DNA of 64,000 bases, taken from assembly GCA_008330645.1 (NCBI GenBank), contig VLTN01000003.1, forward strand, positions 992,001 through 1,056,000, written 5' to 3'. How positions within the stretch are numbered: the first letter of the stretch is position 1; every line of letters starts with the position of its first letter. A program made the translations under genes and the position numbers. Below, piece by piece: positions 56,562 through 64,000 of this stretch. A model generated the notes under the pieces. It did no database searches and was not told the origin of the DNA. It saw nothing but the letters and a program-made list of their open reading frames with translations. Source of the stretch: Cafeteria roenbergensis (taxonomy: Eukaryota > Sar > Bigyra > Bicosoecida > Cafeteriaceae).

Positions 56562-58485
56562 TCAGAAGTGGATGGGCTTGTCGTAAGTGGCCATGGCGGC
56601 CTCCTTGAACGCCTCGGAGAGGGTGGGGTGAGCGTGGCAGGTGCGCGCCACGTCCTCGGCGGAGGCGCCGTACTCCATGGCCAGGACGCCCTCGGCGATC
56701 ATCTCGCCGGCGTTGGCACCCATGATGTGGATGCCGAGGATGCGGTCCGTGGCCTTGTCGGCGATCATCTTGACCATGCCCTCGGACTCCATCACGGCGC
56801 GGGCGCGGCTGTTGGCGCTGAAGGGGAAGGTGCCGACGTTGTACTCGACGCCGGCCTCCTTAAGCTCCTCCTCGGTCTTGCCGACGGAGGCCACCTCGGG
56901 GAAGGTGTAGATGACGCCCGGGATGGCGTCGTAGTTGACGTGGCCGGCGAGGCCGGCCATGGTCTCCACGGCAGCGACGCCCTCCTCCTCGGCCTTGTGC
57001 GCCAGCATGGGGCCCTCGATGACGTCACCGATGGCCCACACGCCGGGCACGTTGGTGCGGAGCTCGTGGTCCACGGGGATGCGGCCGAGGCGGTCGGTCT
57101 CGATGCCGACGTTCTCGAGGCCGAGGCCCTGGGTGAAGGGGCGGCGGCCAGTGGCGACGAGGACGACCTCCGTCTCGATGACGCTTTGCTCGCCCCCGGC
57201 GGCGGGCTCCACAGTGAGGCGCACGCCGTCCTCGGTGACCTCGGAGGAGACCACCTTGGTGCCCATGCGGAAGGTCATGCCCTGCTTCTCGAGGCTCTTG
57301 CGGAAGGCGCTGGAGAGCTCCTTGTCGAGGGACGGGACGGCGCGGTCGAGGAACTCGACCACCTCGACCTCAGCGCCGAGGCGGCGCCAGACGGAGCCCA
57401 TCTCGAGGCCGATCACGCCGGCGCCGATGACGACCATCTTCTTGGGAACGGAGGGGAGCATGAGGGCGCCGGTGCTGTCCACGATGCGGTGCTTGTCGTT
57501 GTCGACGGGCACGGGCGGCAGCGGGGTGGGCTCGGATCCGGTGGCGATGAGGATGTTCTTGGCCGAGAGGGTCTCAGAGCCACCGGCGGTCAGGGCGACC
57601 TCGACGGAGGAGGGGCTCGCGATCTTGCCGTGGCCCTTGACGTAGGTGACCTTGTTCTTCTTGAAGAGGAACTCGATGCCGCCGGTGAGGCCCTTGACGG
57701 ACTTGGCCTTGTTGGCCATCATCTGGTCGAGGTCCACGCTGATGTCGTTCACGATCACGCCGTGCTGCTTGAAGCCGTGCTTGGCGTGCTCGTACAGGTG
57801 GGACGAGTGGAGGAGCGCCTTGGACGGGATGCAGCCCACGTTGAGGCAGGTGCCGCCGAGGGATCCGCGGGACTCCACGCAGGCGGTCTTGAGGCCGAGC
57901 TGCGCCGCCTTGATGGCCGCCACGTAGCCGCCCGGGCCACCACCGACGACGACGACGTCGTAGTCGCCAGCTGCGGAAGCACGCGGCGGGAAGCGCGGCA
58001 GCAGGCGAGGCTTGGGCCGGTGGCGAGCGGCCGGAGTGCGCGCCCGGGCGCCGCGCCTTGGGGCCGCCCAAGGCGCGGCGCCAACCCGGCAATGCGCAGG
58101 CAAGGGGCAAAGCGCGGGGCGCAGCTCGCAGGGGGCGCGTGGGGCGCGCCCAGATTCTCACAGGCAGACGCCATGGCGCGAGCCGGCACGGCCGCCTGCG
58201 GGGCGGGGGAGGGAGCCATTGCCAGCCAAAAGCGGTCAAGAGATGCGCGAAGCGGGCAGGCGCGCGCGATGGGCGCGGCCCGCGGGCGCAGGGCGGCGGG
58301 GGACGGCGGCGACGCGAGCCATCCGAGCAGGGCAACGAGGTCGGCTTCCCGCGCGAGCGTTCCGAAGCGGCAGCGCAGCCGCGACGGTCGGCGCCCCTGC
58401 CGCGCGCGGGGCCGCTCGGAGTCGCGCGGGGGAAGCTCACCACACGGGCGGCGCGGGATGCGGTACGGGCAGCGCGCGCAAGCAT
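56562..58485 (-). CDS. DLD: Dihydrolipoamide dehydrogenase (E3), mitochondrial
   Basis: The main exon (56562-57970) encodes 468 residues of a complete E3 flavoprotein. FAD site: YDVVVVGGGPGGYVAAIKA. Redox disulfide: GGTCLNVGCIPSKALLHSSH. NAD site: MVVIGAGVIGLEMGSVWRRL. Second FAD motif: VPGVWAIGDVIEGPMLAHKA. Dimer-interface catalytic base: CHAHPTLSEAFKEAA. This subunit reoxidises lipoamide in pyruvate, 2-oxoglutarate and branched-chain dehydrogenases and in the glycine cleavage system. The start lies in an upstream exon. ATG 58485 (MLARAARTASRAAR) looks like a presequence, spliced either from C|GTGTGG to the CGCAG acceptor at 57971-57973, or from GTGAGC to a weaker AAG acceptor that adds an Arg/Pro-rich stretch. 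The enzyme is certain, the first exon is not. Confidence 0.93.
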
Positions 58486-58655: not shown

Positions 58656-59559
58656 ATGGCGGCAGCCGCCGGGTCCGCGTCTGGTGCGGCCACAGAGGGC
58701 GCCCTCGGCCCCGACGTCATCTACAAGTATGAGCCCACCTACCGGCTCAAGCCCGCGGAGGACGACAAGTGAGTTCCGTTGCCGCACGCCGTTCGGCGGC
58801 CGGGGACCGGGCAGGGGCTGCTCGGGCGCAGGGCGAAGCGCGGCCCCAGCGCCGGGCGCCCCGCGAGCGGAGCGCGCCCCCCGGCGGCTGCGAAGGCGAG
58901 GCGGGAGTGCTGAGCGTTGCCGCACGGCCACCAGCGCCCGTTGCACAGCCGTGGCCGCCGCCGCCCTCGCCGCCCGCAGGTTCCGTCCCTCGGTGGTCAA
59001 GGCCATCTGTAAGGAGGTCGTGGACGGCTTCCTGAAGGAGCGCGAGTGGAAGGGGGACGAGGAGACCGTGTGGACACGCACGCTCGCCGACGAAATCCGC
59101 ACCCGGGTCAAGGGTGAGGGCAACCTGGCGCAATCGCGCGCGCTCGGCACCCCCGTGCCCGCTCTTTCTGCTCCCCTTGCCGTCTCGTGTGTGCGGGGCC
59201 GGGCGGGGGGTGGGGGATGGACGTGTCGGGGACCGAGGCCGCCGGTGGACCGAGTGGGGCCTCAGCCTCCGCGGCCCCGGCCCCAGCGTCCGAGCGCCTG
59301 CTGCGCTGCTGTCGCCGCCGCCCTCACCTGCCCCTCCGCTGATCCTATCCCTCGCGCGTCTTCGTCCCCGCTCGCAGCGTTGGGGCTCCCACGGTACAAG
59401 TTCGTGGTCCAGGTCAGCCTGGGGGAGGTCCGCGGGCAGGGCGTGCGCGTCGCCTCCCGCTGCCTGTGGGATACGGACACGGACAACCACGCCAGCTACT
59501 CGTTCCGCAGCGACTCGGTGTGGTGCTCCGTCATGGTCTTTGGGCTCTACGCGGAGTGA
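58656..59559 (+). CDS. DYNLT2B: Tctex1-type dynein light chain (DYNLT2B/TCTEX1D2)
   Basis: 142 residues from three exons: 58656-58768, 58980-59113 and 59378-59559 (donors GTGAGT and GTGAGG, acceptors CGCAG); AA|G and G|CG codons rejoin correctly. The sequence tracks the human protein closely: YKYEPTYRLKP, FRPSVVKAICKEVVDGFLKE, the LADEIRTRVK helix, LGLPRYKFVVQVSLGEVRGQ, GVRVASRCLWDTDTDNHASY and the C-terminal SVWCSVMVFGLYAE. TCTEX1D2 is a light chain of cytoplasmic dynein-2, the retrograde intraflagellar transport motor, and is also found on inner arm dynein I1. Two introns in 142 codons make it the most intron-rich gene here per codon. Confidence 0.96.
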
Positions 59560-59996: not shown

Positions 59997-62900
59997 TCAC
60001 AGCAGCTTGGCCTCCCGCATGCTGAGCACGGTTTCGGCCGTGATGAGGGGCAGGTCCGTGTTTCGCAGCTGCTGCGACTTGTACAGCTCCTCCAGCCAGG
60101 AGCACTTGTGGCGCGAGCAGAGGCACACGGTGCCGCCGTACACGATGAAGGTCTTGAGCTCCTCCGGGGAGGCAGCGGCGCCCGGGGAGGCGGCCGAGTC
60201 GGCGCGCACCGGGGAGTCCGGCCCCTCCGACGCGGCGCGGGCGAGGGCCGACGACGCGCTGGCCGACCGCGTGAGCGAGAGGGCCTGCGAGGAGAGGATG
60301 GAGGCGTGCTCGCGCTGGGCCTCTGAGAGCTTCTTCTCGGCGACGTCGGCGTTGAGGCGGCGGGCAGCGAGGGGGGGCGGGCGCGGCGAGTAGCACACCG
60401 AACAGAAGAGCTTGTTCCAGGCGTTGCGGGCGGTGCAGTTGCGGCAGTGGTAGACGCCGGGGGCCGAGGTTAGGCGGGTGTTGGCGTCGCGCTCCAGCGC
60501 CTGGTACTCGCGCCGCAGGTCCCGCATGCGCGAGGAGAGGTCCTCCGACTCGTCGACCGTCGGGTCCGCCATCCACGCGGCAAAGTCGGCGCTGGCAGCA
60601 GCCGCCAGCGCGGGGGTGCGGGCCCCGCTGGAGGTGGAGCCGTGCGCGGCGGCAGCCCCGGAGGCTGCGCGCGTCGGCTTGGCGCCGCCGGCCTGCGACC
60701 CGATGTACTCCGCCTTGACGGACTCGTACTGGGCCTGCAGGGCGTCGGCGGTTTCGCGCAGGAGGATCTTTGCGCTGTCGGGGGCCGGGCGCTGGCCCGT
60801 GGCGCAGGTGGCGCAGGTGGTGTCTGGCCAGGAGTTGAGCACGGTGCACACGGAGCAGGGCCAGCGCCTGGGCGGGCCGGCCGCGTTGGCCTCCGCCATG
60901 AGGGCGGACACGTCGTCCCTCAGGGAGAGGATGGAGGAGGGCAGCTCAAGCCGCGAGGAGGAGGAGGAGGAGGAGGACGCGCCGCCGGAGCGGCCTCCGG
61001 CGGCAGCAGCGGCGGCCTTGGCGAGCTCCTCGTCCTCCTCGCGAGCGCACGCGTCGCACATGTCCCCCGGGATGATGCGCTGTCCGAGGGCGTTGTTCAT
61101 GATGCCCTGTGAGCCGACGGTGGGCGGGCCGTCGGGCACGACGGAGCCGTCGCGCGCCCGCACGAGGAAGAAGGGCACGCCGGGGGGCGTGAACCGCGCC
61201 CGCACCGTGGCGTACACCTGCTTGCAGGTGGTGCCCTCCGTCACGCGGATGACCACGTCGGAGGGGTTGTCCTCGGCGGCCAGGGGCAGGGGCATGAGCC
61301 GCACGCGGATGCGGCCGGTCCTGTCCCCGGCGGCGGCCATGGCCGCGAAGCCGTTCACCTCCACGCCGTCCCGCAGCGCGTCGGCCGCCGCGAGGTCCCT
61401 CGCCTGCATCTCCCGTGCGCGCCACGTCGCAAAGGCGGCGTTGGAGTCCTCCTGGGAGACGGCCCCACGGGGCCGCCCGTCTGCCTCGTCGGCCTCCTTG
61501 CTCTCCCCTTCTCCGACGTCGGCCGGCCGGAGTCCCGCCGGGAGGCGGGTTCCCGCGCCAGCTGCTGCAGCCGCAGCGGCCGCTGCGGCGCCCTGCGTTC
61601 GGGCCTTGCCTGCCGGCGCGCCGGCGGCGGACGCCGCGCTCGCGGCTGCGCCCGCGGCGGCGGGCGGCGCAGGCGCGTCCCAGCTCAGCCCCCTGCTGGG
61701 GTCGGCTGCGAGGGCGGCCCTGGCCAGGCTCGGCGGCCCCCTTCCGGCCGCCGTCGCGGCCTCGGTATCGTCCTGGGCGGGGAGAATGTCGAGGTTGAGC
61801 TTCGCCTCCCAGTCGCCGGTCCACACGGTGGCGGCTGGCACCGCAGGGTGCATGCCCGTCACGTAGAAGCTCAGGTCCCTTTCGCCCTCCCGGAAGCTGA
61901 CGGTCTCGCCCAGCGTGATGCAGCTGTGCTTGGACAGGGCCATCTGCAGGAACTCCTTCGGCGAGTCGAGGGTGGCAAACTCGCTCGAGAAGGGGAGAAT
62001 CTGGAGGAACTTGAGCTTGGGGAGCTCGACGGGGCGCACCGTCACCTCGATCGCGGCGGGTGCGCGGATCGACGACGCCACCCAGTTGGGGAGGATCACG
62101 AACCGGTCCCCCTGGGGCACGTCGTGCGCCTCGATGCTGTGCGAGCCGGCCACGCCGCAGTAGGTGCGCACGAGGTTGTGCCCTGTGACCTCGACCACGA
62201 AGGCGCGCGAGGACATGAGGGTGGAAACCTCGGCGAAGACGGCTCGCGGCACGAGGATCCTGTTGCCCTGCTCAAAGTCGCGGGGCACGTGCACCTCGTC
62301 GCCGAAGACGTCCTCGGCGAAGGAGGCGGGGCAGGCTAGGAAGGGGGCGTCGAACGAGGAGAGGCGGCCCTTGGCAAGCTCCACCATGGACACGCGGGAG
62401 TGCATGCGGCCGTGCGCCGCGCTGAATGCCTCCACGGGGTAGGCACACGCGGTGTGCATGTCCACGCGGGCGCACTCGCGAGCGAGCGCCGCCTTGATCC
62501 AGGAGAGCACAGCGCTCATCCGCATCTCCGCGGGGCTCCACCCCTCCTTGAAGAGGGCGGGGATGCAAAAGGCGCCGCCCTCGGTGGCGCCCGTGTGAGT
62601 GAGCAGAATCGGCCTGTCCATCCTCACGGTTGGCGGCAACGAGGGAAAGCCGGGCGGCAGGAACACTGTCAGGTGCACCTTGCCGTCGGTCCCGTGCAGC
62701 CGCGCGTGCCTCTCGAGGTCCTCCGCAAACTGCGGGCGGGTGGGGGCGAGCGAGCGCGGGGGAGCGGGTGTCGTGGCCGCCCGGCTTTGCGGCGCAAGGC
62801 CGGAACGCCGCGGCGGGCGGGGGCAAGGGGGCGCCGCCTCTGCGGCTGGCCCAGCAAGCGCCCTGGCGGCGGCGGCGGCGCGGCCGGGGCGCGCGTCGGT

Positions 62901-63234
62901 GGCGGTGGAGAGGCCGGCCGCCGAGGCGGCAGGCAGGGGCGGGCACATAAGCGCAACACTGCGACGGGCCGGCGGCTGGCGGTCCTGGCGCGGGCAGGCC
63001 GGCCGGCCCAAGCCGGGCCGCCGACGCTGGCAACTGCCCAGGGCTGCGGGCGCAGCCGGAGGGGCGGCGTGGGAGGCCGCGCGGTGGGCTCACGGCCTTG
63101 CCACTCGGGGTTCCGTCGTCGAAATCGGCAAGAGTCACCAGCCAGCGCCGCGCGTCCGCCGGGTCCTGGACGACGGAGATGTCCGGCCCGCAGCCCGCGC
63201 GGCACTCCTCCAGGGGGGAGGGCGCGGCTGCCAT
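59997..63234 (-). CDS. E2-like / UFD1 / NPL4-type Ubl / NZF zinc-finger fusion protein
   Basis: 957 residues from exons 63094-63234 and 59997-62729; intron GTGAGC...CCGCAG, phase 0. (1) Residues ~18-130 form a UBC-like fold: VHLTVFLPPGFPSLPPTVRM and GGAFCIPALFKEGWSPAEMR, which resembles the UBE2Q active site GGAICMELLTKQGWS and makes Cys102 the candidate catalytic residue. (2) Residues ~185-360 form a UFD1 domain: QGNRILVPRAVFAEVS, VRTYCGVAGSHSIEA, GDRFVILPNWVASSI, LKFLQILPFSSEFATLDSPK, EFLQMALSKHSCITLGETVS. (3) Residues ~515-600 form a ubiquitin-like segment (DVVIRVTEGTTCKQVYATVR) of the NPL4 UBX-like kind. (4) Two RanBP2/NZF fingers: WPCSVCTVLNSWPDTTCATC (~667) and YHCRNCTARNAWNKLFCSVC (~806). 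Coiled coils join them. A role with p97/Cdc48 in ubiquitin handling is inferred. Confidence 0.82.
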
Positions 63235-63419: not shown

Positions 63420-64000
63420 ATGCTCGCCAGCCGCGCTTCCGCCGCAGTCGCCGGCGCTGCCCGCGTCGGGGCCGCCCGCGCCATGTCCACCACCGCCAAC
63501 GTGTGGGTGAACAAGGACACCCGCGTCCTCTACCAGGGCTTCACCGGCAAGCAGGTGCGTTCGCCGACCGTCCAACGCTTCGCGCGCGCGTGCGGCGCCG
63601 CGCCGCGGTCCCACGGCAGCTGGCGTGGCCCCCGGGCCAGGGACAGCGCGGCCAAGGGCGCGCGCGCGCCGGCGACCCGCCGCGGCGCGCCCCGGAGGCG
63701 CCTGCGGGGGCGGCAAGCTGCCGCGGCGCCGGCCTGGGGCCAGAAATGCCGCACGCCGAGCGGAGCGCCAGCCGCCCGCGCCCCCGCGCAGGCGCTCGCG
63801 CTCTCGCCCAGCGGCAGCTCGTTTCCGGCGGCATGCGCGGCGGCGGCGCGCTCCAGGCGCGCGGGCCGAGCACGCGAGCCCCGCCCGGCGCGCTGGGCTG
63901 ACGGGCTTCGTCGTCGCCTTTTTTGACTGCACCTTGCGCCCGTCCCTCGCCCTTGCGCGGGCGTCCCCGCTTCCCCGCGTCTCGCAGGGTACCTTCCACG
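63420..64000 (+). CDS. SUCLG1: Succinyl-CoA ligase alpha subunit, mitochondrial (partial, runs off the window)
   Basis: Exon 1 (63420-63554, 45 codons) encodes a mitochondrial presequence (LASRASAAVAGAARVGAARA) and the mature start [23 protein letters not shown]. After the intron 63555-63987 (GTGCGT...TCGCAG, phase 0), 13 bases of exon 2 give GTFH. [23 protein letters not shown] is the diagnostic N-terminal Rossmann/CoA-binding start of succinyl-CoA synthetase alpha (human [23 protein letters not shown]-like). The enzyme makes ATP or GTP from succinyl-CoA in the TCA cycle. The rest lies beyond the window. Confidence 0.93.

What the first reader, a model, noticed from the sequence alone, without database searches (positions are those of the whole stretch)
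59997..63234. Single protein joining a UBE2Q-like E2, a UFD1 domain, an NPL4-like Ubl and two NZF fingers
Seen: the four segments lie in one frame after removal of one clean intron. Known: UFD1 and NPL4 are normally separate subunits that form a heterodimer on p97/Cdc48; NPL4 carries an N-terminal UBX-like domain and often a C-terminal NZF finger, and E2 enzymes are separate again. Inference: this polypeptide fuses the ubiquitin-recognition parts of the UFD1-NPL4 cofactor with a potential conjugating module, so it might both extend and read ubiquitin chains, or tie an inactive E2 fold to segregase recruitment. I know of no described protein with this order. The UFD1 and NZF parts are strong, the E2 call good, the NPL4-like Ubl weakest.
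Basis: partly seen in the sequence, partly recalled or inferred. Interest (0 to 1): 0.85.

Follow-up and report, generated by a model that had tools for sequence, protein, structure and literature searches.

The report
E2-like–UFD1–zinc-finger fusion protein in Cafeteria
A marine protist makes single proteins that join a relative of a ubiquitin-attaching enzyme to a ubiquitin-chain reader normally found on a separate protein; the fusion is real and occurs in two genes of the genome, but the enzyme part may have lost its activity in some family members.

Summary
On the minus strand (63234..59997) one intron (364 nt, GTGAGC...CCGCAG) gives a 957-aa protein, matching a deposited Cafeteria roenbergensis protein but for 3 substitutions and one serine. 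It has a UBE2Q-type E2 fold, a UFD1 N-domain, a weak candidate ubiquitin-like segment, two helix-finger-helix modules with NZF spacing, and a conserved C-terminal block. Everything after residue 47 lies in one open exon. Two unnamed database relatives keep the order; three searches returned no others.

New here: a paralogue on contig C24 of the same genome carries E2-like part, UFD1, zinc finger and C-terminal block in the same order. Its E2 part runs through where the window gene has its intron, supporting the splice. Separate UFD1-like and NPL4-like genes exist too.

The "NPL4-like" Ubl has no sequence support and only a low-confidence, unspecific beta-grasp-like model; no NPL4 family domain was detected. 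The E2 cysteine is present here and in one relative, but histidine in the other and alanine in the paralogue; five of five aligned UBE2Q1 transfer residues differ.

Best reading: a multivalent ubiquitin-chain adaptor built on a UBE2Q fold, catalysis optional. No experiment tests any activity.

The parts
63094..63234 (-). exon 1 (residues 1-47; N-terminal part of the E2-like fold)
   Evidence: same join in P0001; paralogue contiguous over the junction. Exon 1 is not visible in P0002/P0003.
62730..63093 (-). intron, 364 nt, GTGAGC...CCGCAG, phase 0; the read-through N-termini of P0002 and P0003 also have Q just before the same position, as a CAG acceptor would give
   Evidence: P0002/P0003 N-termini (inference)
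59997..62729 (-). exon 2 (residues 48-957 and stop), one open frame holding the rest of the E2 and all other domains
62397..63186 (-). UBE2Q-like E2 (UBC) domain, residues 17-158, interrupted by the intron
   Evidence: coordinates
62565..62567 (-). Cys102, at the position of the UBE2Q1 catalytic Cys351; Cys in P0002, His in P0003, Ala in paralogue P0004
61761..62354 (-). UFD1 N-domain (residues 173-370)
   Evidence: coordinates
61056..61325 (-). conserved segment, candidate ubiquitin-like (beta-grasp) domain, residues 516-605
   Evidence: 70% and 57% identity to P0002/P0003 over 516-612; weak beta-grasp-like model (51, 58); no sequence match (31, 40)
60690..60947 (-). helix-NZF1-helix module (finger at 60786-60866)
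60279..60539 (-). helix-NZF2-helix module, similar to the first (finger at 60378-60458)
   Evidence: (0 of 1000 shuffles reach the similarity of the two modules)
60000..60161 (-). conserved C-terminal block (residues 904-957) with CxCxxHxC, kept in P0002 and P0003; a similar block without that motif ends the paralogue

Best explanation
The gene encodes one member of a small family, so far seen only in Cafeteria and two unnamed database sequences, in which a UBE2Q-type E2 fold is fused to the ubiquitin-binding N-domain of UFD1, followed by a conserved candidate ubiquitin-like segment, NZF-type zinc fingers between helices and a conserved C-terminal block. Shown: the architecture, its conservation in the relatives, and its colinear core (E2-like, UFD1, zinc finger, C-terminal block) in a paralogue. 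Inferred: the protein is a multivalent ubiquitin-chain adaptor. UFD1 and finger parts hold chains, while the E2 fold serves mainly as a binding or docking module (as in UEV and RWD proteins; recalled), with catalysis at most in members that keep the cysteine. It would select ubiquitylated clients alongside, or upstream of, the ordinary UFD1-NPL4-Cdc48 route, since separate UFD1-like and NPL4-like genes are present.
For: E2 and UFD1 identified by profile against solved structures. Same order in P0001, P0002 and P0003 (P0001 is the window's own species). Domains are better conserved than linkers (to P0002/P0003: E2 63/52%, UFD1 74/65%, Ubl segment 70/57%, C-term 67/56%, finger modules 48/43 and 52/41%, four linkers 17-39%). 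Paralogue P0004 matches E2 (4e-8) and UFD1 (1e-19) in order; of 1000 locally shuffled decoys, 0 reach the E2, UFD1, second-finger or C-terminal score, and 0 of 2000 shuffles reach the C-terminal one. Catalytic Cys replaced in P0003 (His) and P0004 (Ala). UBE2Q1 residues Y343, L354, Y364, E367 and M371, whose mutation lost or markedly cut discharge (passages of PMC10971424), align with A95, A105, M116, S119 and S123 here (read by eye from the alignment, numbered from C351). Separate UFD1-like gene at C1 (9.4e-36) and NPL4-like gene at C38 (Pfam 9.6e-8, PDB 7e-8).
Against: The window gene and P0002 keep the Cys inside an identical 12-residue stretch, GGAFCIPALFKE, which suggests constraint on an active site there. 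The paper's Y343 mutants still loaded ubiquitin, so changed residues need not mean a dead enzyme. No SHP motif was found by pattern, so the Cdc48 link rests on the UFD1 domain alone. UQ_con and UFD1 matches of the window protein lie below Pfam cut-offs, finger matches too. No confident model of E2 or UFD1 was obtained (mean pLDDT 40.4). The usual ubiquitin-contact residues T-F of NZFs (recalled) are T-V and T-A here.
Confidence: 0.5

Rival explanations
1. Active E2 with a built-in reader: Cys102 is loaded by E1, and UFD1 and finger domains hold the growing chain or the ubiquitylated client so that the E2 extends it before Cdc48 takes over. A parallel: the UBE2Q relative UBE2QL1 drives K48 chains that recruit p97 to damaged lysosomes.
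For: Cys kept in the window gene and P0002 in an identical 12-residue context; 89 residues of human UBE2Q1 find this gene first in the whole genome (1.5e-5), though nearly tied with an ordinary E2 (2.4e-5); UBE2QL1 depletion largely reduced K48 signal and p97 recruitment at damaged lysosomes (passages of PMC6776906).
Against: Cys lost in P0003 and P0004; five of five aligned UBE2Q1 transfer residues changed; the E2 match is weak by Pfam.
Confidence: 0.3
2. A fused UFD1-NPL4 cofactor with an E2 attached: UFD1 domain plus NPL4-type UBX-like domain bind p97 together.
Confidence: 0.07
3. Gene-model or assembly artefact: neighbouring E2 and UFD1 genes run together.
For: About 70% GC genome (abstract passage of PMC6972860) with many long frames of no meaning.
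Against: One uninterrupted exon carries the E2 active-site part, UFD1 and all later parts; two other database sequences and a paralogue at another locus share the order.
Confidence: 0.02

Closest known systems
UBE2Q1/UBE2Q2/UBE2QL1 E2 family
   Same: E2 fold most similar to UBE2Q1 (2qgx 4.9e-8); no HPN motif in any of the four proteins; Cys at the catalytic position; conserved GW after it.
   Different: No UBE2Q E2 I know of is fused to UFD1 (recalled; one search listed no paper, and the papers listed show none in title or abstract start); UBE2Q1 residues Y343, L354, Y364, E367, M371 changed; Cys missing in two relatives.
UFD1 (human UFD1, yeast Ufd1)
   Same: N-domain, both subdomains (2yuj 6.3e-8).
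   Different: Within a 957-aa fusion; no SHP motif by pattern; a separate UFD1-like gene is present in the genome.
NPL4
   Same: At most a beta-grasp-like segment and NZF-type fingers (NZF in some NPL4 proteins is recalled).
   Different: No NPL4 family domain detected; order of Ubl and fingers differs from NPL4 (recalled).
NZF fingers of HOIP, TRABID, Nup153
   Same: C-x2-C-x10-C-x2-C spacing; the poor whole-protein model still lists Nup358, Nup153, HOIP and TRABID fingers (E 0.37 or worse).
   Different: Two copies, each within a helix-finger-helix module, the modules similar to each other; Pfam finger model weak or silent.

Membership tests
UBE2Q-type E2 enzymes | UBC fold most similar to UBE2Q | tested here: met
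   Profile A3 best PDB matches 2qgx 4.9e-8 and 1zuo 1.4e-7, next E2 1.8e-3. By sequence only; no confident model.
UBE2Q-type E2 enzymes | catalytic cysteine | tested here: met
   Met in the window gene and P0002; not met in P0003 (His) and P0004 (Ala).
UBE2Q-type E2 enzymes | residues needed for UBE2Q1 discharge (Tyr343; closed-state Leu354, Tyr364, Glu367, Met371) | tested here: not met
   A95, A105, M116, S119, S123 in the window protein by the alignment; roles from PMC10971424 passages. His409 and Trp414 lie outside the alignment: not tested.
UBE2Q-type E2 enzymes | thioester formation and ubiquitin transfer | not testable with these tools
   Needs enzymology.
UFD1 | two-part N-domain (UFD1_N1 + UFD1_N2) | tested here: met
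   2yuj and human UFD1 in p97 complexes, 6.3e-8 to 2.4e-7; Pfam N2 in 3 of 3 members, N1 in 2 of 3, window protein below the cut-offs.
UFD1 | SHP p97-binding motif | tested here: inconclusive
   0 matches in 4 of 4 proteins by one strict and two loose patterns; degenerate motifs would be missed. Motif recalled.
UFD1 | NPL4 binding | not testable with these tools
   Needs a binding assay.
NPL4 | NPL4 family (MPN-like) domain | tested here: not met
   No PF05021 match up to E 1 in 3 of 3 members, none up to E 10 in the window protein.
NPL4 | N-terminal UBX-like domain | tested here: inconclusive
   No sequence match; weak beta-grasp-like model, not NPL4-specific (51, 57, 58).
NZF / RanBP2-type zinc finger | C-x2-C-x10-C-x2-C finger with preceding W and the T/N of the consensus (recalled) | tested here: met
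   Spacing twice in each of 3 members, once in P0004. NZF1 of the window has W, T and N; NZF2 has Y for W (by eye). Profile: Nup153 0.0013, HOIP 0.07; Pfam 3 of 6 fragments, all below cut-off.

The most novel reading that the evidence does not exclude
Probability: 0.1. Interest if true: 0.85.

Novelty: new variant of a known kind. Interest (0 to 1): 0.55.

Why it matters
Gene fusions hint at working partnerships. UBE2QL1 activity brings p97 to damaged lysosomes in human cells (PMC6776906, passages); a natural UBE2Q-UFD1 fusion in a distant, bacterivorous protist is an independent pointer to the same partnership and gives one protein on which to test it. The family also shows an E2 fold with Cys, His or Ala at the active-site position while fused to chain-binding domains, a natural series for asking when an E2 becomes a binding module.

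Tried and rejected
Relatives: three searches of a 5.8-billion-protein database, with exon 2, profile A1, and P0001 residues 40-370, each returned the same 3 proteins (one of the window's own species, two unnamed, sources 'ena' and 'lgn'). Limits: candidates must share exact 5-residue words; searches scored only 7996 and 7985 candidates, probably crowded by alanine-rich words; one search scored 3811. Two scans of viral contigs found no relative. NCBIfam gave nothing useful.

Paralogue, results against colinearity: Ubl segment not significant (230 of 1000 decoys reach its score; 376 of 2000 shuffles). First-finger profile 9 of 1000; fingers by pairwise score 12 and 21 of 2000, with short alignments. 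Its finger has the NZF spacing and W before it, but not the T and N (by eye), and Pfam prefers a zinc ribbon (DZR 0.0024, RanBP 0.091). Its C-terminal block was not listed by a whole-genome search with the window's block, only by the local comparisons. I thought by eye that the paralogue has an RWD domain ahead of the E2; Pfam gave nothing, so it is not claimed.

Stand-alone UBE2Q in this genome: searched with 89 residues of human UBE2Q1 (10 places). The best is this gene; most others overlap ordinary E2 places; a fragment at C18:125457 (E 0.033) was not followed up, so absence is not claimed.

Neighbour check that went wrong: one search scanned the neighbouring-gene piece 59399-59557 in the wrong frame; one search repeated it in the right one.

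Papers: searches UBE2Q+UFD1+fusion+'domain architecture' (0 papers), UFD1+NPL4+fused+protist (7 listed), UBE2Q+UFD1 (8 listed), UBE2Q+PARP+'domain architecture' (2 listed): none shows such a fusion in the titles or abstract starts listed. I saw passages only of PMC10971424, PMC6776906, PMC6972860, PMC11354881 and PMC1949818. The library holds open-licence papers only.

Full report
What was checked. The window lies in a 36.3-Mb, 167-contig genome (window = G000:C3:992001-1056000). The protein's near-identical database match is FNF31_04881 of Cafeteria roenbergensis, a bicosoecid flagellate now often called C. burkhardae (synonymy recalled). The published genomes are about 70% GC with 1.67-1.89 introns per gene; gene finders were trained with a transcriptome (passages of PMC6972860), which does not show that this intron was itself seen in RNA.

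Gene model. On the minus strand, exon 1 is 63234-63094, the intron 63093-62730 (364 nt, GTGAGC...CCGCAG) and exon 2 62729-59997, giving 957 residues. Sequence alone allows 573 open combinations. The choice rests on three things: the deposited protein has the same join, differing by L58M, L78S, T441A and one added serine; the paralogue described below has sequence like exon 1 and sequence like exon 2 side by side in one frame; and in the two other relatives, whose predicted proteins seem to read into the intron, a Q stands exactly before the exon 2 boundary, as a CAG acceptor would give (inference). All residues after 47 sit in one uninterrupted exon, so the fusion does not depend on the intron.

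E2 part. A profile of three sequences finds UBE2Q1 (2qgx, 4.9e-8) and the related 1zuo (1.4e-7) in the PDB, far ahead of the next E2 (1.8e-3). Pfam UQ_con scores 2.2e-4 on the window protein, below its cut-off, and appears in 2 of 3 members. In reverse, 89 residues of human UBE2Q1 find this gene as the best place in the genome (1.5e-5), nearly tied with an ordinary E2 (2.4e-5). Cys102 aligns with catalytic Cys351. It is Cys in P0002, His in P0003 and Ala in the paralogue: 2 of 4 family members lack it (window and P0001 counted once). UBE2Q1 residues that matter for transfer (Tyr343, Leu354, Tyr364, Glu367, Met371; PMC10971424 passages) align with A95, A105, M116, S119, S123 in the alignment; His409 and Trp414 lie beyond it. 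Against that, the 12 residues around the Cys are identical between the window gene and P0002, and Tyr343 mutants of UBE2Q1 still load ubiquitin, so activity in those two is open. A review reports UBE2Q-type E2s as mainly metazoan and patchy in protists (passages of PMC11354881).

UFD1 part. Profile match to human UFD1 (2yuj 6.3e-8; UFD1 in p97 complexes about 2e-7; yeast Ufd1 9.4e-4), the human ones over both subdomains; Pfam UFD1_N2 in 3 of 3 members, UFD1_N1 in 2 of 3. The genome also has an ordinary UFD1-like gene at C1 (9.4e-36 to human UFD1), a second UFD1-like locus at C9 and an NPL4-like gene at C38; two further weak NPL4 matches at C11 and C39 were not examined beyond.

Fingers and C-terminus. 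The spacing C-x2-C-x10-C-x2-C occurs exactly twice in each of P0001, P0002 and P0003; the profile matches a Nup153 finger (0.0013) and the HOIP NZF (0.07); the Pfam RanBP finger appears in 3 of 6 fragments, weakly. Each finger sits between predicted helices, and the two modules resemble each other (0 of 1000 shuffles in each of 3 sequences), as a tandem duplication would give. The last 55 residues are 67% and 56% identical and carry CxCxxHxC in all three. The four linkers are 17-39% identical.

Paralogue. Searching the genome with the E2 region found C24:76485-76823 (8.4e-8) inside a 1547-codon frame (P0004). BLASTP of the two proteins gives 1e-19 over the end of the E2 and the UFD1 part and 4e-8 over the first part of the E2. 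Profiles of the orthologues placed on P0004 against 1000 locally shuffled decoys: 0 reach the score for E2, UFD1, second finger and C-terminal block; 9 for the first finger; 230 for the Ubl segment. P0004 itself finds UFD1 in the PDB at 4.1e-5 and UBE2Q1 at 0.03. So E2-like part, UFD1, zinc finger and C-terminal block occur in the same order at two loci, one without the catalytic Cys. A whole-genome search with the window's C-terminal block alone did not list C24, so that block's homology rests on the local tests.

Distribution. Three searches of the large protein database returned the same three proteins. The family looks narrow, but the search is word-based, and P0004 was not searched there.

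Function. Shown: the architecture, its conservation, and variation at the active-site position. Inferred: UFD1 and finger parts bind ubiquitin chains; the E2 fold is mainly a binding module, with catalysis optional (0.5), or an active writer with a built-in reader (0.3). The UBE2QL1-p97 axis in lysophagy (PMC6776906 passages) makes a functional link between a UBE2Q-type E2 and Cdc48 reasonable. No SHP motif was found by pattern in the four proteins, so that link is a hypothesis.

Novelty. Four searches of an open-licence library (listings, plus the passages named) showed no such fusion. The parts are known kinds; the combination and the pair of a Cys-bearing and a Cys-less paralogue are new to me.

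Noticed in passing
G000:C24:75072-79712 (L018 1573-6213): 1547-codon frame of the paralogue: E2-like part with Ala at the catalytic position and a long Ala/Ser-rich insertion, then UFD1, a zinc finger and the C-terminal block; its N-terminal region resembles an RWD domain by eye only (Pfam silent).
   Followed up: partly
G000:C9:457828-458924 (L002, L008, L009): Second UFD1-like locus besides the one at C1, split into several exon-like matches.
   Followed up: partly
L005 19-2622 (G000:C38): 867-codon frame with an NPL4 family match (Pfam 9.6e-8, partial; NPL4-like protein 2 in PDB 7e-8), a separate NPL4-like gene.
   Followed up: partly
window 56562-58157, strand -: Pyridine nucleotide-disulphide oxidoreductase (Pfam 3.2e-79 plus dimerisation domain 8.4e-43); looks like dihydrolipoamide dehydrogenase by eye.
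   Followed up: partly
window 58656-59559, strand +: Tctex-1 family dynein light chain gene in apparently three exons: Pfam Tctex-1 5.8e-17 for 59398-59556 and 5.1e-5 for 58981-59115.
   Followed up: partly
window 63420-64000, strand +: Start of a gene resembling succinate-CoA ligase alpha subunit by eye, divergent from the fusion gene with start codons 186 bases apart; a 45-residue piece gave no Pfam match.
   Followed up: partly
G000:C18:125457-127699: E2-like matches in pieces, some within a 1017-codon frame, including one to human UBE2Q1 at E 0.033; could be another unusual large E2.
   Followed up: no
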